Part shown: piece by piece, positions 38,917 through 49,607 of the stretch
Position numbering within the stretch: position 1 is the first letter of the stretch
Layout of the letters: the number at the start of each line of letters is the position of its first letter
From: Acidobacteriota bacterium
Lineage (GTDB): Bacteria; Acidobacteriota; UBA6911; JACOSC01
Assembly (NCBI GenBank): GCA_016179055.1
Contig: JACOSC010000191.1
Coordinates: forward strand, 1-50,753
Length of the DNA: 50,753 nt
Reading direction: 5' to 3'
Notes under the pieces: model-generated
The model's database searches: none
What the model saw: the letters and a program-made list of their open reading frames with translations, nothing else
What the model was told of the DNA's origin: nothing
Made by a program: the position numbers and the translations under genes

Positions 38917-39261
38917 TCAGCGACGGCGGTACGCCGGCCGCTGCAACTGGTTATGCGCGGCTTGCTTCATCCTCGCTTCGAGATGCTCATATTCCCCGAG
39001 GTGCGCGCGCATCAGGCTTTTCCAAAGCTTGCCGTGGTTGGGCACGGAGAAGTGTAGGAGTTCATGAACGACCACGTAGTCTCCCAAGTCCCGATCCAAC
39101 CCCAGTAACTCGTCGTTGAAACTCAGCGTTCCCGCCGTCGAGCATGACGCCCACTTATTGCGCATCGGGCGCACATACAGCCCACGCATCTTCACATCCA
39201 GCTTGGCAGCCCATTCCACCACGCGGGTTTTGAACTCCTCTTTGTCGCGCCAACTATTCAT
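38917..39261 (-). CDS. YgjP/DUF45-like metallopeptidase, short form
   Basis: NKWASCSTAGTLSFND...VVHELLHFSVPNHGKLWKSLM (HExxH); start overlaps hsdR stop by 4 nt. Confidence 0.85.
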   Translation of the reverse strand: MNSWRDKEEFKTRVVEWAAKLDVKMRGLYVRPMRNKWASCSTAGTLSFNDELLGLDRDLGDYVVVHELLHFSVPNHGKLWKSLMRAHLGEYEHLEARMKQAAHNQLQRPAYRRR

Positions 39262-42209
39262 GGGCGGAAGCCCTTTTGCAAAAGGGTGAACAAGGCTTCG
39301 ACCGTAGCGGTGACCTTCTCCACGTCGTCTTCCTCGGCGATGACGGCGAACGTCACCTGCTTCCGCAACTCCCGCAGTTCTGCCTCGCTGCGCTGCCAGT
39401 TGGGGAACTTTGCGAACGCCTCGCGCACCTTCTTGCTCACTGCCTCGGGGTTAGGAATGTCGTCGTCAGTTAGCTTGCACAGCACGAAATAGGTCAACCC
39501 ATCCAGTCCCTTCGCGGCCTGTTCCTTCTTTCGCTGCTCGTTCTTTTCAATTTCCTTCAGCAAGTCCGAGAGCGCATCGGCCGTGCTCGTCTGTCGATCC
39601 TCAAAACTCTCCTGCACGGCCTTGGCACGCTCCGAAAGAGCCACGAGGAACGGATCGTCGCTGTTCTCGTCCGCCGTCCTCTCGATGCTCTTGACCAGGT
39701 TGAGGACCTTCGCGCCTTCGCCGCCCTTTTGTTTATTGATCAGCTCGACCGTTGCGGCGTCGATCGTCACGAACCTGTTGACGTGCCCCAGCCGGTCTAC
39801 ACCGATGTGCTTCTGGACCAGTTCGTTTGTTTTCTTCTGGAAAGCCCTGTCCACATATACCATTTTGGCGTAGGCGTTCCGCACAACGGCGTAAATTGAA
39901 GAGAGCGTCGTATAAGGGTCAATGAACGGCCGCAGGAACGCATCCGGCGAGATGAGCTCGTAGAGCATCTCGATCTCTTTGTATTCCTTGAAGAACTCCT
40001 TGCGCCGCGCCTTGTCGCGGAAATGTTCGATGAGGTTGTCCACGTCCTTATCATCGAAGCTTCGCGTGACCAGCGCCAGATACGCCGGGGCCTTCGTCGC
40101 CATCTTCGCTTTGAAAAGGTGCTTCAACAGGCTGATGCCCTTGACGATGGCGTTGATCTCGTCGCTGTCGAAGGCCAGCGCCTTTTCCAGCTTGTCGAAG
40201 ATGCCCACGAAATCAAGGACGAAGCCGTGCGGCTTCACCATAGCTGCCGCCTCGTTCTCGTATGGGCGGTTCACCCGCGCGATGGCCTGGAGCAAAGTGT
40301 GATCGCGCATTGGCTTGTCCAGATACATCGCGTAAAGAATCGGCGCGTCGAAGCCGGTCAGCAGCTTCTCGGTGACGATCAAAATCTTCGGCCACTCGCC
40401 GACCTTGATGAAGTTCTTGCGGATCTGCTTCTCGCGTGTCGGATCGAGATGCCACTTCTTCAGGTGCGCTGGGTCGTTGTTGTTGCCGGTGAAGACGATC
40501 TCCGAATACTCCGGCGGTAGGATGGCATCAAGCGCTTCCTTGTAGAACGCGCATGCCTCGCGATCCACCGCCACGAGGAACGCCTTGTAGCCGAGCGGCT
40601 CTACGTTTCCCCGGAAATGGCCGGCCACGTAGCGCGCCACTTTATTTACCCGGTCCTTGCCTTTGAGGAAATTCTTCAAGTTCACTGCACGTTCGAGAAT
40701 CTTGTTCAGCTCCTCGATGTCCGCGATACCCTCGGTCTCCGCCAGGGCGAGGAACTCCTTTTCCATGATCTCGTGAGGCATGAGCATCTCGTTCGGCGCG
40801 AGGTTGTAGTAGAGAGGCAGCGTGGTCCCGTCCTCGATGCTCTCGGCGATGGAATACTTGTGCAGGTAGCCCTTGTCATCCTCGCAGCCGAAGGTCTTGA
40901 AGGTGCCCTTGCCGTAGGCGGTCTTGTCCACGGGCGTGCCGGTGAAGCCGAGGAAACTTGCGTTCGGCAGGCCCGCCATCAGGAAGTTGCCGAGGTCGCC
41001 GCCCGTGGTGCGGTGCGCCTCGTCAATTAACACGAAGATGTTGCGCCGCAGATTCAAGTTCCCCGGCATGTCGCGGAACTTGTGGATCATTGTTACAATG
41101 ATGCCGCGATAGTCCTGCCCCATCTGGTTCAGCAGCCGGTTCAACTCGGCGATGGAGCGGGCGTGCAACACATTGCCCAGCCCCACTGACGCCAGGTTCT
41201 TGAGCATCTGATCTTCCAGTTCGTTGCGGTCGATCATCAGCAGGATGGTCGGTTTCTCCGCCTCAGGCGCTTTGAACAGCAATTCGGCGGCCTTGATCAA
41301 CGTGTAGGTCTTGCCGCTACCCTGCGTGTGCCAGACGAGACCGCGCGAGCGCTTGGGGTCGAGCGCGCGCGACACCACCTTGTCCACCGCCGTTGTCTGG
41401 TGCTGGCGCAGGCTGATCTTCTGAAGCTCCTCCTCTTTTTCCGCAAAGAGGATGAAATCTTTCAGAAATCGCAGGAGATGTGGCATGGTGCAGAAGCTTT
41501 TGACCTTGGCTTCAAGGTTACCGACTTCTTCGTGCTTCCAATTGAAAAGGTTTCGCCTCACCGTGTTCCACGTAACTCCATAGACGAAGCCGATGGCCTC
41601 CGTGGCAGTGAAGAGCATCTGCGGCACCATCACCTCCGGCGTCTCAGCGTGGTAACGGCGAATCTGATCCACTCCGAGCGCGATTGCCTCGTCCTTGCTC
41701 GCGTTCTTGCATTCGATCACCAGCACCGGGATGCCGTTGATGAGGAACACCACGTCCTCCCGCGTGCTGTGTTTGCCGTTGTGCATGTAAAACTCTTCCG
41801 TCACCTCATACACATTGCACCACTGCGCTCGCGGCCGGGCAAGGTCGCCATAATCAATCAACGTCAGATCCAGTTCGCGATTCTCTTCCAGGCAGAAAAA
41901 CTTGTGCTGATTGCGCAGCGCCTGGAGGAAATCCCGATTGCCGTAGATGTCGGCGTGGAATCGCTGAAACTCGGTGACCAACGCGCCCTCGGCCTCCTTG
42001 TATTTCGGGTTGAAGGCCCGGACCTGGGTGTACAGCAGGTCGCCGAAGAACAACGACGCCTTGCGCGCGCGTTCTTCCGGTGTCGCACCATCCGGGTCAA
42101 ACCCGCGCCGCCGTTCGGCCTCATCGCGCGGCACGTAAGTCCACCCGATCTCCTGCGCGTATTTCAGGATGCAGGCCTGGACGGTTTTATGTTCGGATGG
42201 AGTGGCCAT
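39258..42209 (-). CDS. hsdR: Type I restriction endonuclease subunit R
   Basis: N-terminal nuclease motif VLVIECKNA, WHTQGSGKTYT Walker A, DEAHRT, AIARVNRPYENE helicase motif VI region. Confidence 0.95.
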   Translation of the reverse strand: MATPSEHKTVQACILKYAQEIGWTYVPRDEAERRRGFDPDGATPEERARKASLFFGDLLYTQVRAFNPKYKEAEGALVTEFQRFHADIYGNRDFLQALRNQHKFFCLEENRELDLTLIDYGDLARPRAQWCNVYEVTEEFYMHNGKHSTREDVVFLINGIPVLVIECKNASKDEAIALGVDQIRRYHAETPEVMVPQMLFTATEAIGFVYGVTWNTVRRNLFNWKHEEVGNLEAKVKSFCTMPHLLRFLKDFILFAEKEEELQKISLRQHQTTAVDKVVSRALDPKRSRGLVWHTQGSGKTYTLIKAAELLFKAPEAEKPTILLMIDRNELEDQMLKNLASVGLGNVLHARSIAELNRLLNQMGQDYRGIIVTMIHKFRDMPGNLNLRRNIFVLIDEAHRTTGGDLGNFLMAGLPNASFLGFTGTPVDKTAYGKGTFKTFGCEDDKGYLHKYSIAESIEDGTTLPLYYNLAPNEMLMPHEIMEKEFLALAETEGIADIEELNKILERAVNLKNFLKGKDRVNKVARYVAGHFRGNVEPLGYKAFLVAVDREACAFYKEALDAILPPEYSEIVFTGNNNDPAHLKKWHLDPTREKQIRKNFIKVGEWPKILIVTEKLLTGFDAPILYAMYLDKPMRDHTLLQAIARVNRPYENEAAAMVKPHGFVLDFVGIFDKLEKALAFDSDEINAIVKGISLLKHLFKAKMATKAPAYLALVTRSFDDKDVDNLIEHFRDKARRKEFFKEYKEIEMLYELISPDAFLRPFIDPYTTLSSIYAVVRNAYAKMVYVDRAFQKKTNELVQKHIGVDRLGHVNRFVTIDAATVELINKQKGGEGAKVLNLVKSIERTADENSDDPFLVALSERAKAVQESFEDRQTSTADALSDLLKEIEKNEQRKKEQAAKGLDGLTYFVLCKLTDDDIPNPEAVSKKVREAFAKFPNWQRSEAELRELRKQVTFAVIAEEDDVEKVTATVEALFTLLQKGFRP

Positions 42210-42290: not shown

Positions 42291-42665
42291 ACCTTCCGTC
42301 CACGCGAACTTGCGAATTTCAAACTTATAGGAGTCAAAGTTGATCAACAACCCGTGCTCAAGTCGCGAGGACTTCAGGTATCCCAGGATCTGCGCTTCAT
42401 GCTCCGGGGCGAGCGTCTTGGCGGTTTTCAATTCGATGATCAAACGACCTTCCACCAGCAAATCCGCCAGATAATCCCCGATGAGTGTCCCGTCCTCGTC
42501 ATACACCTTGATTGGGTGTTGCTGTTTCACGTCCAGCCCCGCTTTCCGCAGCCGGTGCGCCAGCGCGTTCTCGTAAACCTTCTCCAGATGCCCATGCCCA
42601 TGATAAACGTGAAGGTCGTAGGCAATCTGCCGCACCTGATCACTCAATGATTTGATGTCCTTCAT
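42273..42665 (-). CDS. GxxExxY family protein
   Basis: VYHGHGHLEKVYENALAHRLRKAGLDVKQQHPIKVYDEDGTLIGDYLADLLVEGRLIIELKTAK. Confidence 0.92.
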   Translation of the reverse strand: MKDIKSLSDQVRQIAYDLHVYHGHGHLEKVYENALAHRLRKAGLDVKQQHPIKVYDEDGTLIGDYLADLLVEGRLIIELKTAKTLAPEHEAQILGYLKSSRLEHGLLINFDSYKFEIRKFAWTEGQPQRA

Positions 42666-43759
42666 GGCGTCTTCTTTCTTTGTGTTCTTTGCGTTCTTTG
42701 CGGTTTTTTGATTGGAGGCAGCCTCTTCACTGCCGCCTCGAAGTCCTTTTCCACTTGCGAGGGCTGGGCAAGCTGAAGGACTCGGAACTTCTCAAACTCC
42801 AGTTCCGCCTTCCGCAACGCCTGCTCGTGCGAAATCTTGCCTGCGTGCATGAGAATCTCCCGACCGCTCAGACGCAGGAAATTCTCCAGCTTAGCGATCC
42901 AGTCCCGCATATACATCGGCTTGCGGTTCAGCGCCTGGAGTTCGGCAAATTCAAGATAGGCGTTGACGATGCGGTTGAGGGCTTCGAGTTCCTCCGACGT
43001 CAGGTAGTTCTTGGCAATGACCGCTTCTCCCCTGCTCGGTTTGGCCCCCTGCCAACTCGTCAAGCCCATGTTCTGCCTCGTGGCGTCAGCTCGGTCATGG
43101 ACAATCTCCGCTGCCGTGCGCCCGTGCGCCGCCCAGTGCATCTTGTTCTGCACCGTGGCGAAGAAAACCTGCGACGCCTCTTCGCCCGGGTCGTAGTCAA
43201 TGCTCGTCGCGTAAATCTCCAGCACCTTGCGCCAGAAAACTTTTTCCGACGACCGAATATCGCGGATGCGGGCCAGCAATTCCTCGAAATAATTCCCGCC
43301 CCCCGCCCGCTTGAGCCGCTCGTCATCCAGCGCGAAGCCCTTGACGATGTATTCCCGCAACCGTTGCGTCGCCCAGATGCGGAACTGCGTGCCGCGATGC
43401 GACTTCACGCGGTAACCGACGGAAATGATGACATCGAGGTTGTAGTGTTCCACCGAGCGGGACACCTGCCGGCTTCCCTCCTGTCGAACTATTAAGAATT
43501 CCTTAACAGTTGCCGACGGCTGCACCTGGCCCTTCGGTTGAACTGACAAGGATTCCTTGTGAGTTGCCTCCGGCGTCAATTCCCCCTCTTCATAGATGTT
43601 CTGGATGTGCAGGCTGACGTTTTGTTGAGAGGTCTGAAACAACTCCGCCATTTGCGCCTGCGTCAGCCAGACCGTCTCACCCTGCATCCGCACTTCCAGC
43701 CGTGTGCGGCCGTCCGGCGCTTGATAGAGCAACAATTGGGATTTCGGTTCGTCGCTCAT
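42662..43759 (-). CDS. RhuM-family protein (copy 2)
   Basis: LLLYQAPDGRTRLEVRMQGETVWLTQAQMAELFQTSQQNVSLHIQNI, VISVGYRVKSHRGTQFRIWATQRLREYIVKGFALDDERLK. Confidence 0.92.
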   Translation of the reverse strand: MSDEPKSQLLLYQAPDGRTRLEVRMQGETVWLTQAQMAELFQTSQQNVSLHIQNIYEEGELTPEATHKESLSVQPKGQVQPSATVKEFLIVRQEGSRQVSRSVEHYNLDVIISVGYRVKSHRGTQFRIWATQRLREYIVKGFALDDERLKRAGGGNYFEELLARIRDIRSSEKVFWRKVLEIYATSIDYDPGEEASQVFFATVQNKMHWAAHGRTAAEIVHDRADATRQNMGLTSWQGAKPSRGEAVIAKNYLTSEELEALNRIVNAYLEFAELQALNRKPMYMRDWIAKLENFLRLSGREILMHAGKISHEQALRKAELEFEKFRVLQLAQPSQVEKDFEAAVKRLPPIKKPQRTQRTQRKKTP

Positions 43760-44022
43760 TTCTTCCCCTTCGCAATGGCAGCTTCCAATTCCGGCAAATC
43801 GAGGGTGTGGACGCGAAGCTGCGCAGTCATGAGTTGGTGCAGCAGATCGCCATAGAACAGCGACGCCTTGCGGGCCCGATCCTGCGGCGTTGCTCCGTCC
43901 GGATCAAAGCCCCGCCGCCGCGACGCCTCGGCGCGCGGCACATAAGTCCATCCGATCTCCTGCGCGTATTTCAGGATGCGGGTCTGGACGGTTTTATGTT
44001 CGCCGGGAATCTATGCGCTCAT
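43756..44022 (-). pseudogene. Chimeric remnant: hsdR N-terminus fused to hsdS C-terminus, with early in-frame TAG
   Basis: Minus-strand frame reads MSA*IPGEHKTVQTRILKYAQEIGWTYVPRAEASRRRGFDPDGATPQDRARKASLFYGDLL|HQLMTAQLRVHTLDLPELEAAIAKGKK*; left part matches HsdR 1-60, right part the HsdS end. Confidence 0.9.
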
Positions 44023-44064: not shown

Positions 44065-44523
44065 CTATATCAGCTTGCACCGCGAAAGCAGGAGAGTGAT
44101 GGCGAGCAGGATCGCAAGGCCGCCATGAAAGATGAGCAAGGCCGGAGATACCATCACCTGGCCCCACGCGCCGACCTCATTCGAAACAACAGACGTGTCC
44201 ATACTGAAGTCGGTGGGCATGTCTTGAGGTTGGCTACGGTAGCGGTCATAGAGCTTTCGAAACAGTCGCTCTTGCCGAAGAAAGAAACCGTCCAACAACC
44301 AGAAGGCTGCGACGGGAATCACAGCAACCCAACCCATGGCATACACCTTGCCTTGGGCGGTTAGCACCAAAATTGCTGACAGCAGCGTGACGCTCCACCC
44401 CTTAACCAGAAACGAATTACTCGCCATGCGCGTAATGATCTGCTGAAGCATTTCTAGATGCTTGAGCCGGCCGGTGTTGATCTGAGGAGCATTCGACTGA
44501 CTGGATGATGTTTCGTTGGACAT
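44065..44523 (-). CDS. Small multi-pass membrane protein, candidate effector
   Basis: MASNSFLVKGWSVTLLSAILVLTAQGKVYAMGWVAVIPVAAFWLLDGFFLRQERLFRKLYD and a C-terminal TM; start 2 nt after the upstream stop. Confidence 0.75.
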   Translation of the reverse strand: MSNETSSSQSNAPQINTGRLKHLEMLQQIITRMASNSFLVKGWSVTLLSAILVLTAQGKVYAMGWVAVIPVAAFWLLDGFFLRQERLFRKLYDRYRSQPQDMPTDFSMDTSVVSNEVGAWGQVMVSPALLIFHGGLAILLAITLLLSRCKLI

Positions 44524-44525
44524 AG

Positions 44526-45101
44526 CTAACCTCTCTCAGCAGGTTCAGAACCTTCGAGCCACGAATCAAAATCAACGTAGCAGGTCGAGCTTCGACACAC
44601 CCAAAGTCGCCGTTTGCCCGTCCTATCGTTCCCCGCATCGACGTACGGATAAACCCCAAGATACTCCTGCCCCTGATAGGTTGTCGTTGAATACTGAACA
44701 ACGGGCAGAATGGCGGCGCGTGTGTTATCGCCATCCTTGAAGCCTAGCTCCCAAGGCATCCATTTCGAATCGCTGGCGTTACTCGTGGTCGAGTATAACA
44801 AGCAACGGCTGACTTTCATTCGCGCCTTGAGCTTAGCCGCTGTCTCGGGTGTGACCTTCGAGCGATCCAAGTGAGGATCGTCGCGCCAGTCAATATAAAC
44901 GGAGTACCCCAAGTCCTCAATCATCAATGCTAGGCCAAGCACGAGCTCACGGTCCGTGTAGGCGTGAGACAGAAACATGTCGTGCCGAGTAGCTGATGCC
45001 TGGACACGAACGTGCTCCGTCAACACTGCCGTCGCTGACTTCCGAAGCGTGGTGCCCGCCTTAGCCCTGCCTCGAACCGCAGATTCTGTGAACAGTGCCA
45101 T
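44526..45101 (-). CDS. TIR-domain protein (start MALFTES at 45101 preferred over 45113)
   Basis: HDMFLSHAYTDRELVLGLALMIEDLGYSVYIDWRDDP...SKWMPWELGFKDG. TAATG junction with the upstream gene. Confidence 0.82.
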   Translation of the reverse strand: MALFTESAVRGRAKAGTTLRKSATAVLTEHVRVQASATRHDMFLSHAYTDRELVLGLALMIEDLGYSVYIDWRDDPHLDRSKVTPETAAKLKARMKVSRCLLYSTTSNASDSKWMPWELGFKDGDNTRAAILPVVQYSTTTYQGQEYLGVYPYVDAGNDRTGKRRLWVCRSSTCYVDFDSWLEGSEPAERG

Positions 45102-45670
45102 TACGCCACCCAAGTACCGAAGTTGTGGAAGCCGTTATTGGCAACCCAGTCGTATGTACGCAACCAGTGGGACAGTTGAAAGTGCTTACCTCGCTTGTCC
45201 CATGGCTGCTCAGCAATTTCGAACCCCTCGAGGTCCTTGTAGTACACCCACTGCATACCGTTCCAAACCGTCGGTGTACCACGTATACCGTCTGTACTGA
45301 TTTGCAGGCCGAGGTAATCGAATGGGTTCGGGCCCAGGGTCTTTACTTGCTGATTCTTGTCCGGAATGCCGTTAATGTGAACTCCGATCACTTTGTTGCC
45401 ACGTTCGATGCTTTTCATGATTTCGTAGCGCACCCAACGGCGGGCGTATGTTTGCGTGCCTATGAGGACGACGGTCACCGACGTATTGTCTAGGCCGCCA
45501 TTGATAAGGCGTTTCAAGGCGACATCGCCCTGCCTCTTTGCCGATTCCCATATGGAAGCATCAAAATAGCCCGCGTTGTCATCCTTGGTAACATTGTGAT
45601 TCCGGACGATGTTAGCTCGAAAGTCAATCACGTCCTGATAGTGGAAACTGAAGAAGACACGGCGTGCCAT
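45101..45670 (-). CDS. ThsB-like (DUF1863/MTH538-type) TIR-fold protein
   Basis: MARRVFFSFHYQDVIDFRANIVRN...VTVVLIGTQTYARRWVRYEIMKSIERGNKVIGVHING. Confidence 0.82.
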   Translation of the reverse strand: MARRVFFSFHYQDVIDFRANIVRNHNVTKDDNAGYFDASIWESAKRQGDVALKRLINGGLDNTSVTVVLIGTQTYARRWVRYEIMKSIERGNKVIGVHINGIPDKNQQVKTLGPNPFDYLGLQISTDGIRGTPTVWNGMQWVYYKDLEGFEIAEQPWDKRGKHFQLSHWLRTYDWVANNGFHNFGTWVA

Positions 45671-45673
45671 TTT

Positions 45674-47038
45674 TTAATCCCCTCCGGATAACACCAAGTC
45701 CTTACCAAGTTCCGGCAATTCAGAAAGGTCGAGGTTATAGACCCGTATCTGCGCCGTCATGAGCTGGTGCAGCAGGGTGCGGAAAAGGGCGGTGAGGGTA
45801 GCGTGTTTGCGCTCATGCACTTTCTCTTTCCGGTCGAGAGCGGCGAAGACGCCGACAATTTCGCGTTGTTCGTCAAGCGAAGGCACCGGAATGGGATAGG
45901 TCTTAAGGTAGCCGCACGTCAGCGCGCCTTTCGTGCTGCCTCCCGCCTGGCTGATGGAGCGCAGATGTTCGTAGCGCGTCTGCATGAACCAAAGGACAAA
46001 CTCCGGCACTATTTTCGGTGAAGTGAACTGCGCGTAGGCAAGGTGCTGGTTGATGCAGGTCTCGAACGAAATCAGCGCCGAATTGCCGAGCGTCTTGCCT
46101 TGGCCGGTGATTGCAATGAGAAGGCTGCCGGGCTTCACGCGCGGGAGATGACATTCTTTTACAGCGAGATCGGTTACGAACTGGTCGGCCTCGGTGATGA
46201 ACCGTTCGTGAATCTTTGCGCTGTTCAGCCACGGAATCGTGCCGCCTTGCCAGTAGCCTTCGTTGTCACGCTTCGGCGTCGAACCGTTGCCGACTTTTGC
46301 CAGCGAGCCGAGCGCCACCACTTCCCAACTCCCCGGCATGGGGCCGATTTCGGTTTGTTTTTGAGTTTCGCCGCGGAGGCCTTGGGTGAAGAGCTGGTGC
46401 AGTAGCGCCTTTCTCAGTTCCGTGGTCAGCGCGATCAGCCGTTCCTGCTGCTCCAGCGCCCGCTGCACCAGCCCCAACACCCCCGCAATCTTCCGCTGCT
46501 CGGCGAGGGGTGGGATTGGGATGATGCGGCTTCCGAGCGTTTCCTTGCTTAACCTTTGTCGTCCGGTGGTGCCGTCCATCTTCCCAGCCAACTCAGAAGG
46601 GATTTCGGGATGGAGCAGGAGGTAGAACAGGAAAAGTTTGTCGCTTATGCCTTTGATTTCTTGGATCGGGATCACTTCGGTAGTGGCAAATCCAAACGGG
46701 CGATCCCAGTCCACGATGGCTTGCTTCCCGTTCTCGAACGAAGGCGTGATCCTAGCAACGAGAAGGTCACCGTTTTCAATGTAGGTTCCGCTGGTGAGTT
46801 TGTCCGAAGGACGTTCTTCGTAAGTTGAGACGCGAAGGCATCCAATGGGGATTTGATCCATCGGCAGAAACGGAACACGTCCGTTTTTTGAAACGTTTCG
46901 TCTGCGAGGTTTAGTCGTGAAGCGATACACTTCACGGATTGGCTTCATTTCCCAATCGGAAGCAAAGCCATCACCGGTTTCAAGCCAGCCCTCCGTTTCT
47001 CCGCGTCTCCCCATCTCCGCATGGACTTCCGTCTTCAT
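45674..47038 (-). CDS. hsdS: Type I restriction specificity subunit S
   Basis: Two TRD-like halves, each followed by IP(I/V)P(P/S)L.EQR.I.GV(L/F) and LLHQL(F/M)T. Confidence 0.93.
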   Translation of the reverse strand: MKTEVHAEMGRRGETEGWLETGDGFASDWEMKPIREVYRFTTKPRRRNVSKNGRVPFLPMDQIPIGCLRVSTYEERPSDKLTSGTYIENGDLLVARITPSFENGKQAIVDWDRPFGFATTEVIPIQEIKGISDKLFLFYLLLHPEIPSELAGKMDGTTGRQRLSKETLGSRIIPIPPLAEQRKIAGVLGLVQRALEQQERLIALTTELRKALLHQLFTQGLRGETQKQTEIGPMPGSWEVVALGSLAKVGNGSTPKRDNEGYWQGGTIPWLNSAKIHERFITEADQFVTDLAVKECHLPRVKPGSLLIAITGQGKTLGNSALISFETCINQHLAYAQFTSPKIVPEFVLWFMQTRYEHLRSISQAGGSTKGALTCGYLKTYPIPVPSLDEQREIVGVFAALDRKEKVHERKHATLTALFRTLLHQLMTAQIRVYNLDLSELPELGKDLVLSGGD

Positions 47039-48060
47039 CCCTTGCCTCCCTTCTTCCGCTTGGGTTTGGCGGCGGGGAGTTGCTTGATGCTCTTCTCGAA
47101 GTCGTCGGACCGATCCGCGTTCTCGGCGATGCTCTGGCGGTGGAAGGTGTCGTATTGCATCTCGGCGTGGCCAAGGGCCAGCTCGTGGGAAATTTTCCCA
47201 GCATGGGTGAGGATGCCGCGATCATTGAGGCGAAGGAAGCCATTGAGCTTGGCGATCCAGCCGCCCATGCGCATGGGGACGCGCCGCATGGCTTGGCCTT
47301 CGGCGAAGACAAGGTATTGCTCCACCAGATTGTTGAGTGCGGCGAGTTCCGACTCGGATAGGTAGTTTTTGGCGATGGCAACATCCTCTTTGCGTACCTT
47401 GGTTCCTCGCCAGTTGGTGAGACCCATATTCGGCTTGGCACTGTCCGCCCGATTGCGGACGATCTCCGCTGCTGTCTGACCCGTGATGGCCCAGTGCATC
47501 TTGTTCTGCACAGTTTTGAAGAAGGTGATGCTGGCCTCGGCGGTGGGATCGTAGTCGATGCTGGTGGCGTAAATGTCGGTGATCTTCTGGTAAAATCGGC
47601 GTTCGGACGTGCGGATGTCCTGGATGCGCCGCAGGAGTTCCTCGAAGTAGTCGAAGGGGAGGTCGGGGTTTTTCAGCCGCTCGTCGTCCAGCACAAAGCC
47701 CTTGACGATGTATTCTCGCAGCCGTTGCGTGGCCCAGATGCGGAACTGGGTGGCGACGCGGGATTTAACGCGGTAGCCGACGGAGATGATGGCGTCGAGG
47801 TTGTAAAAATTCGTTTGATAGTTCTTGCCGTCAGCGGCAGTTGTAAAGAATTTCTTTACAACTGATGTCTCGGCAAGTTCTTCCTCATCGAAGGTGTTTT
47901 TTAGGTGCTGGCCGATGTTTTGTTTCGTGGTCTGGAAAAGTTCCGCCATAAGCTGCTGGGTAAGCCAGACGGTTTCGTTCTCGAACCGGACATCAATCTT
48001 GATGGTGCCGTCGTCGCTCTGATAAATGAGCAACTGGGATTTGGACGGGACATCGCTCAT
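47035..48060 (-). CDS. RhuM-family protein (copy 1)
   Basis: ETVWLTQQLMAELFQTTKQNIGQHLKNTF, AIISVGYRVKSRVATQFRIWATQRLREYIVKGFVLDDERLK. Confidence 0.92.
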   Translation of the reverse strand: MSDVPSKSQLLIYQSDDGTIKIDVRFENETVWLTQQLMAELFQTTKQNIGQHLKNTFDEEELAETSVVKKFFTTAADGKNYQTNFYNLDAIISVGYRVKSRVATQFRIWATQRLREYIVKGFVLDDERLKNPDLPFDYFEELLRRIQDIRTSERRFYQKITDIYATSIDYDPTAEASITFFKTVQNKMHWAITGQTAAEIVRNRADSAKPNMGLTNWRGTKVRKEDVAIAKNYLSESELAALNNLVEQYLVFAEGQAMRRVPMRMGGWIAKLNGFLRLNDRGILTHAGKISHELALGHAEMQYDTFHRQSIAENADRSDDFEKSIKQLPAAKPKRKKGGKG

Positions 48061-49607
48061 GCCCTGAGCCTCCCGAGAATGGTCTTCAGCGCCTTGTCCG
48101 TCTCCCGCGCCTCGCCCTCCAGCGCGTCCAACTCATCCACAATCTCCGCGATGGGCCGGTATTCGTCGGCTGCGCAGGTGTGGATGTAGCGGCTGGGGGA
48201 GATGTTGAAGTCGTTCTTGGCGATCTCGTCGCGTGAGACGATGCGGCTGTATTTCTCCACCTCGCACCACGCCTTGAAGGTGTCGGCGATGCGCCTGATG
48301 ACGTCCTCGGGGATATAGTTTTTCGGGTCGCCCTTGGTGCACTCAGTGGTGGCGTTGAGCAGGAAGAGTTTTCCTTGGCGCTCCTTTGCCCTCGCCTTGT
48401 TCAGGAAGAGGATGATGCCGGGCGCGGTGGTGTTGTAGAAAAGGTTCTCCGGGAGGTAGATGACGCCCTCGATGAGGTCCTGCTCCACGAACCAGCGGCG
48501 CACGTCTTTTTCCTTGTTAGTGTTGGCATTGCCGGAGCCGCGCGAGGCGGCGCCGGTGTCGAGCACTACGGCTGCACGGCCTTGCGGCTTGAGACTGGCT
48601 AGGATGTGCTGCACCCAGCCCCAGTCGGCTTTGTTGCCGGGAAAGCCCGCGCCCTTGGGGAAGCGGTCGAGCTCGTCGGCGTCGTAGTCTTTCTCGGTGA
48701 ACTCGGTTTGGTTCCACATGGGATTGGCCACCGCGCGGTCGAAGGTCTGGAGGCGATTGCCCTGGCGGAATTTCGGAGGGCGGAAAGTGTCGCCGATCTC
48801 TATCTGGCCCTCCATGTCATGGATGATCATGTTCATGTTGGCCATCGCCCAGGTGGTGGGTGTAGATTCCTGGCCGTAAAGTTTGAGCGGCGCGAAGTTA
48901 TTGCGGGTGCGCAAGGCCATCTTCTCTTCGAGCGCCAGCTCACACTTGATGAGCAGGCCGGCCGAGCCACACGTGGGGTCGTAACAGGCCATGCCCGGCT
49001 CGGGATCCATGATACGCGCCATGATCTCGCCCACCTCGCCGGGCGTGTAGAACTCGCCCGCGCTCTGCCCGCCGCCTTCGGCGAACTTGCGGATGAGATA
49101 TTCGTAACTGCGCCCGATGATGTCCGCCTCCACGTCGCCGAGGCCGAGGCGCTTTTCGCTGATGCGCTCGATGAGGTTGGAGAGGCGGTTGTCGTCGATG
49201 TCACGTACGCCGTGGGTGGTCGCGTTGAAGTCCACGCGGTCGATGATGCCCTTGAGCAGCGCGTTTTCGTCGGCGAGTGCGCGAAGGTGCGTAGTGAGTT
49301 GCTCGCCGATCTTGTCCGCGAGCTTGCGGATAACGGACCAGACGGCGGCGTCGGGATTGGCGGGTTGCAGCGGTAGGTAGAAACGGACGAGTTTCTTGTC
49401 GTGCTTCACTAGCTTGAACGCCTTGGCCCGCGAGCCGACTGCCTTCGCGATGCGGTTTAATTCGTCATCGAAGACAGCGCACAGGCGCTTCGTGAAAATG
49501 AGCGGGAGGATGTAGTCCTTAAACTTCGGCGCATCTTTGGCTCCGCGAATGGAACAGGCAGCATCCCAGATCCAGGATTCCAGCGATTTGTCGCTACCGT
49601 TGTTCAT
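48057..49607 (-). CDS. hsdM: Type I restriction N6-adenine methyltransferase subunit M
   Basis: GGGQSAGEFYTPGEVGEIMARI, YDPTCGSAGLLI, and motif IV region NPMW (usual form NPPF/NPPW). Confidence 0.95.
   Translation of the reverse strand: MNNGSDKSLESWIWDAACSIRGAKDAPKFKDYILPLIFTKRLCAVFDDELNRIAKAVGSRAKAFKLVKHDKKLVRFYLPLQPANPDAAVWSVIRKLADKIGEQLTTHLRALADENALLKGIIDRVDFNATTHGVRDIDDNRLSNLIERISEKRLGLGDVEADIIGRSYEYLIRKFAEGGGQSAGEFYTPGEVGEIMARIMDPEPGMACYDPTCGSAGLLIKCELALEEKMALRTRNNFAPLKLYGQESTPTTWAMANMNMIIHDMEGQIEIGDTFRPPKFRQGNRLQTFDRAVANPMWNQTEFTEKDYDADELDRFPKGAGFPGNKADWGWVQHILASLKPQGRAAVVLDTGAASRGSGNANTNKEKDVRRWFVEQDLIEGVIYLPENLFYNTTAPGIILFLNKARAKERQGKLFLLNATTECTKGDPKNYIPEDVIRRIADTFKAWCEVEKYSRIVSRDEIAKNDFNISPSRYIHTCAADEYRPIAEIVDELDALEGEARETDKALKTILGRLRA

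What the first reader, a model, noticed from the sequence alone, without database searches (positions are those of the whole stretch)
44065..45670. Two different TIR-type proteins plus a small membrane protein as a compact module inside a type I R-M operon
Seen: three minus-strand genes in series. A ThsB-like DUF1863 TIR (45670-45101) is joined by TAATG to a classical TIR protein with a WELG motif (45101-44526), then after 2 nt a 152-aa multi-pass membrane protein. Established: TIR proteins in Thoeris make nucleotide signals from NAD that activate an effector, and small multi-pass membrane proteins act as effectors in several signalling defence systems. Inference: one TIR senses or signals, the other is an NADase or second synthase, and the membrane protein is the pore-forming output. 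No ThsA-like (SIR2 or Macro) effector is present, so this would be a Thoeris-like variant or a distinct system.
Basis: partly seen in the sequence, partly recalled or inferred. Interest (0 to 1): 0.85.

Follow-up and report, generated by a model that had tools for sequence, protein, structure and literature searches.

The report
Thoeris-like pair with swapped membrane effector
Inside a DNA-restriction operon sit two phage-sensing TIR genes of the known Thoeris type, but the usual NAD-destroying killer protein is missing and a small membrane protein, found beside TIR genes across bacteria and archaea, takes its place, so this looks like a Thoeris immune system with an exchanged weapon.

Summary
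P0001 (45670-45101) is a full-length relative of Bacillus cereus ThsB1 (PDB 9b7d/6lhy, E 4e-74). P0002 (45101-44526) is a relative of BcThsB (PDB 8btn, E 1e-40). P0003 (44523-44065) is a three-helix membrane protein of the PADLOC candidate family PDC-M50A. No ThsA was detected in the genome.

The strongest evidence is a sister operon (L071, same phylum; HsdM 74%, HsdR 73% identical). The same hsdS-hsdR slot there holds a canonical type I Thoeris: SIR2-STALD ThsA plus three TIRs. In the window, M50A is present instead. 33 of 41 loci fetched by M50A alone have a TIR neighbour. In 49 loci carrying these TIR types plus an effector, M50A and SIR2/patatin-SLOG/caspase never co-occur. Two unlike TIRs plus M50A recur in three other loci, in other gene orders.

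Best reading: a Thoeris-like signalling system whose effector has been exchanged for a membrane protein. Sensing, signal chemistry and membrane damage are inferred, not shown. The M50A/M50B pair was already flagged as a candidate. A published 'Thoeris type III' exists whose composition I could not read; if it is this, novelty falls.

The parts
45101..45670 (-). ThsB-type TIR (DUF1863 / PF08937), 189 aa; candidate NAD-derived signal synthase, Phe6 and Glu83
   Evidence: Pfam 4.4e-22; PADLOC ThsB 4.5e-59 and PDC-M50B 8.2e-57; ThsB1 9b7d/6lhy full length E 4e-74; Glu83 invariant in the 14 aligned proteins
44526..45101 (-). Second TIR (TIR_2 type), 191 aa, WELG motif with Glu118 and Phe43; candidate phage sensor/partner or second synthase
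   Evidence: PADLOC ThsB 2.7e-59; 8btn_B (BcThsB) 1.3e-40; predicted fold's best PDB match 8btn, E 3e-9, on a model of moderate confidence
44065..44523 (-). M50A small three-TM membrane protein, 152 aa; candidate membrane effector in place of ThsA
   Evidence: PADLOC PDC-M50A 6.4e-45; conserved R32, K41, L77-D78, E85; AF2 pLDDT 89.8; no Pfam, PDB or fold match
45674..47038 (-). hsdS, specificity subunit; upstream border of the accessory slot
   Evidence: Pfam Methylase_S
43786..44007 (-). Scar: HsdR residues 4-60 fused to HsdS residues 418-441; marks the old start of hsdR just behind M50A
   Evidence: tblastn 84% and 67% identity; repeat D1; alignment
39258..42209 (-). hsdR, intact copy, downstream border
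   Evidence: Pfam SWI2_SNF2, HSDR_N; NCBIfam hsdR above cut-off
48057..49607 (-). hsdM of the same operon, 74% identical to HsdM of L071
   Evidence: Pfam; tblastn

Best explanation
The trio is a Thoeris-like abortive-infection module with an exchanged effector, carried as cargo in the hsdS-hsdR slot of a type I R-M operon. Proposed working: (1) the two TIR proteins come together on a phage component (inferred). (2) One of them, most likely the DUF1863 ThsB P0001 with Phe6/Glu83, converts NAD+ into an ADP-ribose-type messenger (inferred from conserved residues and from Sau-Thoeris). (3) The messenger, or the assembled TIR complex, switches on M50A, a three-TM helical protein in the inner membrane, which permeabilises or depolarises the membrane and stops phage growth (inferred). 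Shown here: the identity of the TIRs, the absence of a detectable ThsA, the frequent genetic tie of M50A to TIRs, its non-co-occurrence with other Thoeris effectors, and the swap of effector at one and the same genomic slot.
For: Both TIRs match B. cereus Thoeris TIRs of solved structure. L071: same R-M operon, same slot, ThsA (PDB 6lhx E 2e-139; STALD 1e-63) plus three TIRs, no M50A. The scar shows M50A was once followed directly by hsdR. The window ThsB groups at 99/96 with ThsBs of SIR2 and SLOG loci, and effector labels are scattered on the tree: 14 changes for M50A against 14.4 for shuffled labels. M50A has a TIR neighbour in 33 of 41 loci found by M50A alone (tallied). No locus carries M50A together with SIR2, patatin-SLOG or caspase: 36 loci with M50A and these TIRs, 13 with the other effectors. 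The trio composition recurs in L021, L106, L107. Catalytic Phe and Glu are kept in both TIRs. No STALD-ThsA found in the genome, with a positive control.
Against: No biochemistry exists for M50A, and no nucleotide-binding domain is visible in it; its fold matches nothing. 8 of 41 M50A loci lack a TIR neighbour, though three are one genus and one is cut by a contig end. The P0003 model is a monomer, so no pore can be judged. The genome is 95% complete in 334 contigs, so an unlinked effector cannot be wholly excluded. The other-effector profiles were built from few sequences, and the patatin profile caught L070 by its SLOG domain only.
Confidence: 0.72

Rival explanations
1. M50A is a membrane anchor or brake for the TIRs rather than the killer: the TIRs themselves deplete NAD+ and M50A positions or restrains them by direct contact.
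For: M50A has no recognisable ligand domain. It pairs with very different TIR architectures, including LRR-Roc-COR-TIR and nSTAND1-WD40 proteins. TIRs such as SpbK act as NADases themselves (PMC12847820).
Against: Loci with another Thoeris effector never carry M50A, which fits an effector slot better than an anchor. In the sister operon the slot is held by a bona fide effector, ThsA.
Confidence: 0.16
2. Toxin-antitoxin arrangement: one protein is a constitutive toxin and a partner neutralises it; phage infection breaks the pair.
For: Tight translational coupling of all three genes and carriage on plasmids and prophages.
Against: Two ThsB-type TIRs with intact catalytic residues match a signalling system. 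Several M50A genes stand alone (L006-L009), which an M50A toxin with a TIR antidote would not tolerate; a TIR toxin with an M50A antidote is not excluded by that.
Confidence: 0.07
3. A decayed or inactive type I Thoeris that lost ThsA, with an unrelated membrane gene next to it by chance.
For: The R-M operon is rearranged, with a scar and two RhuM copies.
Against: All three ORFs are intact and coupled; M50A next to TIRs is a recurrent pattern in bacteria and archaea; the trio recurs in L021, L106 and L107.
Confidence: 0.05

Closest known systems
Type I Thoeris (ThsA SIR2-STALD + ThsB TIRs; B. cereus MSX-D12, S. aureus 08BA02176)
   Same: Both TIR proteins are close relatives of the B. cereus Thoeris TIRs; two unlike TIRs in one operon as in Sau-Thoeris (PMC12578639); L071 carries type I Thoeris in the same R-M slot.
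   Different: No ThsA; a 152-aa three-TM protein instead.
Type II Thoeris (TM-macro ThsA)
   Same: Membrane-acting effector downstream of TIR signalling (PMC11204291).
   Different: M50A has no macro domain and no similarity to TM-macro ThsA detected by Pfam or PDB search; the ThsB active-site Phe is kept, not the Tyr of subfamily 9.
Type IV Thoeris (TIR + caspase-like protease; Rousset 2025, cited in PMC13373217)
   Same: Effector exchange around ThsB-type TIRs; L102 shows a P0002 relative beside a caspase gene.
   Different: Effector class.
PADLOC candidate PDC-M50 (M50A + M50B)
   Same: P0003 matches M50A, P0001 matches M50B.
   Different: A listed candidate; I found no paper naming it. The window adds a second, TIR_2-type ThsB.
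'Thoeris type III' (named in PMC12390725 through Costa et al. 2025, countered by phage TadIII)
   Same: Possibly the same thing; its composition could not be read with the library at hand.
   Different: Unknown.
prrC anticodon nuclease carried in type Ic R-M operons (own knowledge)
   Same: A second-line suicide module nested inside a type I hsd operon.
   Different: Mechanism: tRNA cleavage rather than TIR signalling.

Membership tests
Thoeris (any type) | At least one ThsB-family TIR protein | tested here: met
   PADLOC ThsB 4.5e-59 and 2.7e-59; ThsB1 PDB match 4e-74
Thoeris (any type) | Conserved catalytic Glu opposite Phe in the TIR | tested here: met
   Phe6/Glu83 in P0001, Phe43/Glu118 in P0002; the Glu positions and Phe43 invariant in alignments
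Type I Thoeris | SIR2-STALD ThsA in the operon | tested here: not met
   None in the operon, none found in the genome, positive control rings
Type II Thoeris | TM-macro ThsA | tested here: not met
   No macro domain in P0003 or the operon proteins scanned
Type IV Thoeris | Caspase-like protease effector | tested here: not met
   No such gene among the operon proteins scanned
Thoeris (any type) | TIR makes an NAD-derived messenger that activates the effector | not testable with these tools
   Needs biochemistry
PDC-M50 (PADLOC candidate) | M50A membrane protein with M50B TIR next to it | tested here: met
   PDLC04686 6.4e-45 and PDLC04688 8.2e-57
SLATT / S-2TM-beta (Cap15, OptE) membrane effectors | SLATT or beta-barrel domain with two TMs | tested here: not met
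   No Pfam SLATT match in 24 members; model all-helical, no beta domain; no significant fold match
Thoeris type III (Costa 2025) | Its defining effector | not tested
   Paper not held

The most novel reading that the evidence does not exclude
M50A is a general-purpose TIR-activated membrane effector shared by bacteria and archaea, able to serve ThsB pairs, Roc-COR-TIR and STAND-TIR sensors. Whole Thoeris modules change their killing mechanism by swapping this protein for ThsA at the same genomic slot while keeping the TIR pair.
Probability: 0.45. Interest if true: 0.72.

Novelty: new variant of a known kind. Interest (0 to 1): 0.55.

Why it matters
Thoeris effectors so far described in the papers read here act by NAD depletion, TM-macro oligomers or a caspase. 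A small membrane effector without a visible ligand domain, tied to TIRs of many architectures, would be a separate output class and a minimal one. Two closely related R-M operons with the same slot but different effectors give a ready-made experiment: the same kind of TIR pair, two outputs. It also lets one ask whether phage sponges such as Tad1 and Tad2 that soak up the type I signal also block this variant, which would reveal the messenger.

Tried and rejected
SLATT, Cap15/OptE-type and macro-TM identities for P0003: no Pfam, PDB-sequence or fold support; the best viral fold hit (DUF2270, E 0.28) is not significant. A fixed gene order for the trio: rejected, three different orders are seen (window; L107; L021 and L106). 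A separate M50A-specific clade of DUF1863 ThsBs holding the window protein: rejected by the tree. A promoter of the trio's own: matches at chance level. Papers: the E. coli TIR survey, Rousset 2025, Sabonis 2025, Costa 2025 and one further guessed DOI were not held. A wrongly guessed PMC id fetched an unrelated paper, and the term Hypnos returned noise.

Full report
What is there. Three intact, translationally coupled minus-strand genes follow hsdS of a type I R-M operon. P0001 (189 aa) is a DUF1863 ThsB: Pfam ThsB_TIR 4.4e-22, PADLOC ThsB 4.5e-59, and it matches the solved B. cereus ThsB1 (9b7d, 6lhy) over its full length including the C-terminal part, E 4e-74. P0002 (191 aa) is a TIR_2-type ThsB: PADLOC 2.7e-59, solved BcThsB 8btn 1.3e-40, profile 3e-66. 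Its predicted fold, at moderate confidence, finds 8btn first and TIR domains below it. P0003 (152 aa) has no Pfam family and no PDB relative but belongs to PADLOC's candidate PDC-M50A, whose partner PDC-M50B is P0001's family.

The membrane protein. Relatives at 21-53% identity share R32, K41, L77-D78, L82, E85 and usually R89. AlphaFold2 gives a confident all-helical model with helices 17-56, 61-97 and 127-151 (pLDDT 89.8). Hydropathy peaks near 46, 71 and 137. Nothing comparable was found by fold in the PDB or viral libraries. No SLATT, macro or nucleotide-binding domain is visible.

M50A goes with TIRs. I collected 41 distinct loci by the membrane protein alone (genome contigs, the window's phylum, plasmids, viral contigs). 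By HMM, Pfam and reading of the L001 protein's N-terminus, 33 have a TIR gene next to them (tallied). Hosts span Bacillota, Desulfobacterales, enterobacteria, Vibrio and haloarchaea; a cyanobacterial case was found through the TIR. A Vibrio element classed under Vinavirales carries ThsB and M50A with overlapping ends. TIR partners include DUF1863 ThsBs, TIR_2 ThsBs, an LRR-Roc-COR-TIR protein (L029) and TIR-STAND proteins (L001, L002). In E. coli, a TIR-M50A locus is in 23 of 5426 complete genomes, mostly on plasmids.

M50A takes the effector's place. Around relatives of the two window TIRs I found SIR2-STALD ThsA (L025, L071, L075; by profile or annotation also L099, L100, L103, L108, L109), patatin-SLOG or SLOG proteins (L070, L072, L094, L101) and a caspase (L102). 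In no locus does M50A occur with any of them (0 of 36 M50A loci, 0 of 13 others). On the ThsB tree, effector labels are no more clustered than shuffled ones, and the window ThsB sits at 99/96 among ThsBs of SIR2 and SLOG loci, not among the short M50A-associated ones. The window TIR_2 protein likewise lies on the side of the tree with SIR2, caspase and patatin partners, although one M50A-partnered TIR (L019) is there too. So the window most likely has a type I-like TIR pair whose effector was exchanged.

Same slot, different effector. In L071 (another genome of the phylum) the orthologous operon (HsdM 74%, HsdR 73%, M48 63%, HsdS only 33%) carries between hsdS and hsdR a bona fide ThsA (6lhx E 2e-139) and three TIRs, the first 62% identical to P0001. 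In the window the intact hsdR is displaced, but a scar about 60 nt behind M50A holds HsdR residues 4-60 (84% identical) fused to HsdS residues 418-441, followed by RhuM and GxxExxY genes. This reads as two slot-bearing operons joined by deletion, so the trio originally filled hsdS-hsdR exactly as Thoeris does in L071. In L083 (HsdM 72%) the slot holds another gene, a 746-aa methylase-like ORF by eye. The trio has lower GC3 (0.62-0.66) than hsdM and hsdR (0.80-0.83), as expected of cargo; hsdS is equally low.

The trio elsewhere. Two unlike TIRs plus M50A occur in L107 (prophage: M50A-ThsB-TIR_2, all three confirmed by PADLOC), L106 (phage contig: TIR_2-M50A-ThsB) and L021 (Vibrio plasmid: TIR-M50A-ThsB). 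Order differs, so composition rather than order is what recurs.

Mechanism. In S. aureus Thoeris the TIR called ThsB1 binds phage capsid protein and recruits ThsB2, whose Phe6/Glu81 active site makes 1''-3' gcADPR, also called 3'cADPR (PMC12578639). P0001 keeps Phe6 and Glu83, P0002 Phe43 and Glu118. I therefore assign P0001 as likely synthase and P0002 as likely sensor or partner; this is inference, and in the S. equinus system of the same paper the catalytic role falls to ThsB1 instead. That M50A is the output at the membrane is inferred from its position, exclusivity and topology; no ligand site is shown.

Novelty. The components are known or flagged: ThsB TIRs, and PDC-M50 as a listed candidate for which I found no paper. 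A published Thoeris type III, countered by TadIII, is mentioned in PMC12390725, but its genes could not be read here. If its effector is M50A, the finding is a new member; otherwise it is a Thoeris variant with a new effector class. What I did not find described is the same-slot exchange of ThsA for M50A.

Noticed in passing
window 43786-44007: Chimeric scar of HsdR N-terminus fused to HsdS C-terminus, a record of joining two accessory-bearing R-M operons.
   Followed up: yes
window 47035-48060 and 42662-43759: Two RhuM-family genes (about 54% identical) in one R-M operon, one between hsdM and hsdS and one behind hsdS; both match PADLOC candidate PDC-S05. A GxxExxY protein gene follows the second.
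   Followed up: partly
L072:3216-6002: TIR_2 + ThsB_TIR followed by a SLOG-patatin protein: a possible Thoeris variant with a phospholipase effector; L101 (Klebsiella variicola plasmid) has TIRs beside a gene annotated as a cGAMP-activated phospholipase.
   Followed up: partly
L070:2402-8225: Four ThsB-type TIRs with a further TIR protein, a SLOG cluster2 protein and a DzbA-like neighbour in one locus.
   Followed up: partly
L029:1-2788: LRR-Roc-COR-TIR gene directly upstream of an M50A gene in a prophage contig (53% identical M50A segment).
   Followed up: partly
L102:2078-4070: TIR-caspase-TIR locus, type IV Thoeris-like, on an Enterococcus faecalis conjugative plasmid.
   Followed up: no
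L110:1347-2635: ThsB plus M50A next to an integrase gene in a 14-kb Vibrio virus classed under Vinavirales.
   Followed up: no
L022:3661-5060: Haloarchaeal plasmid with M50A flanked by two DUF1863 TIR ORFs between ISH3 transposases.
   Followed up: no
L083:3393-5633: The hsdS-hsdR slot of a related operon (HsdM 72%) holds a 746-aa DNA-methylase-like ORF, so the slot takes varied cargo.
   Followed up: partly
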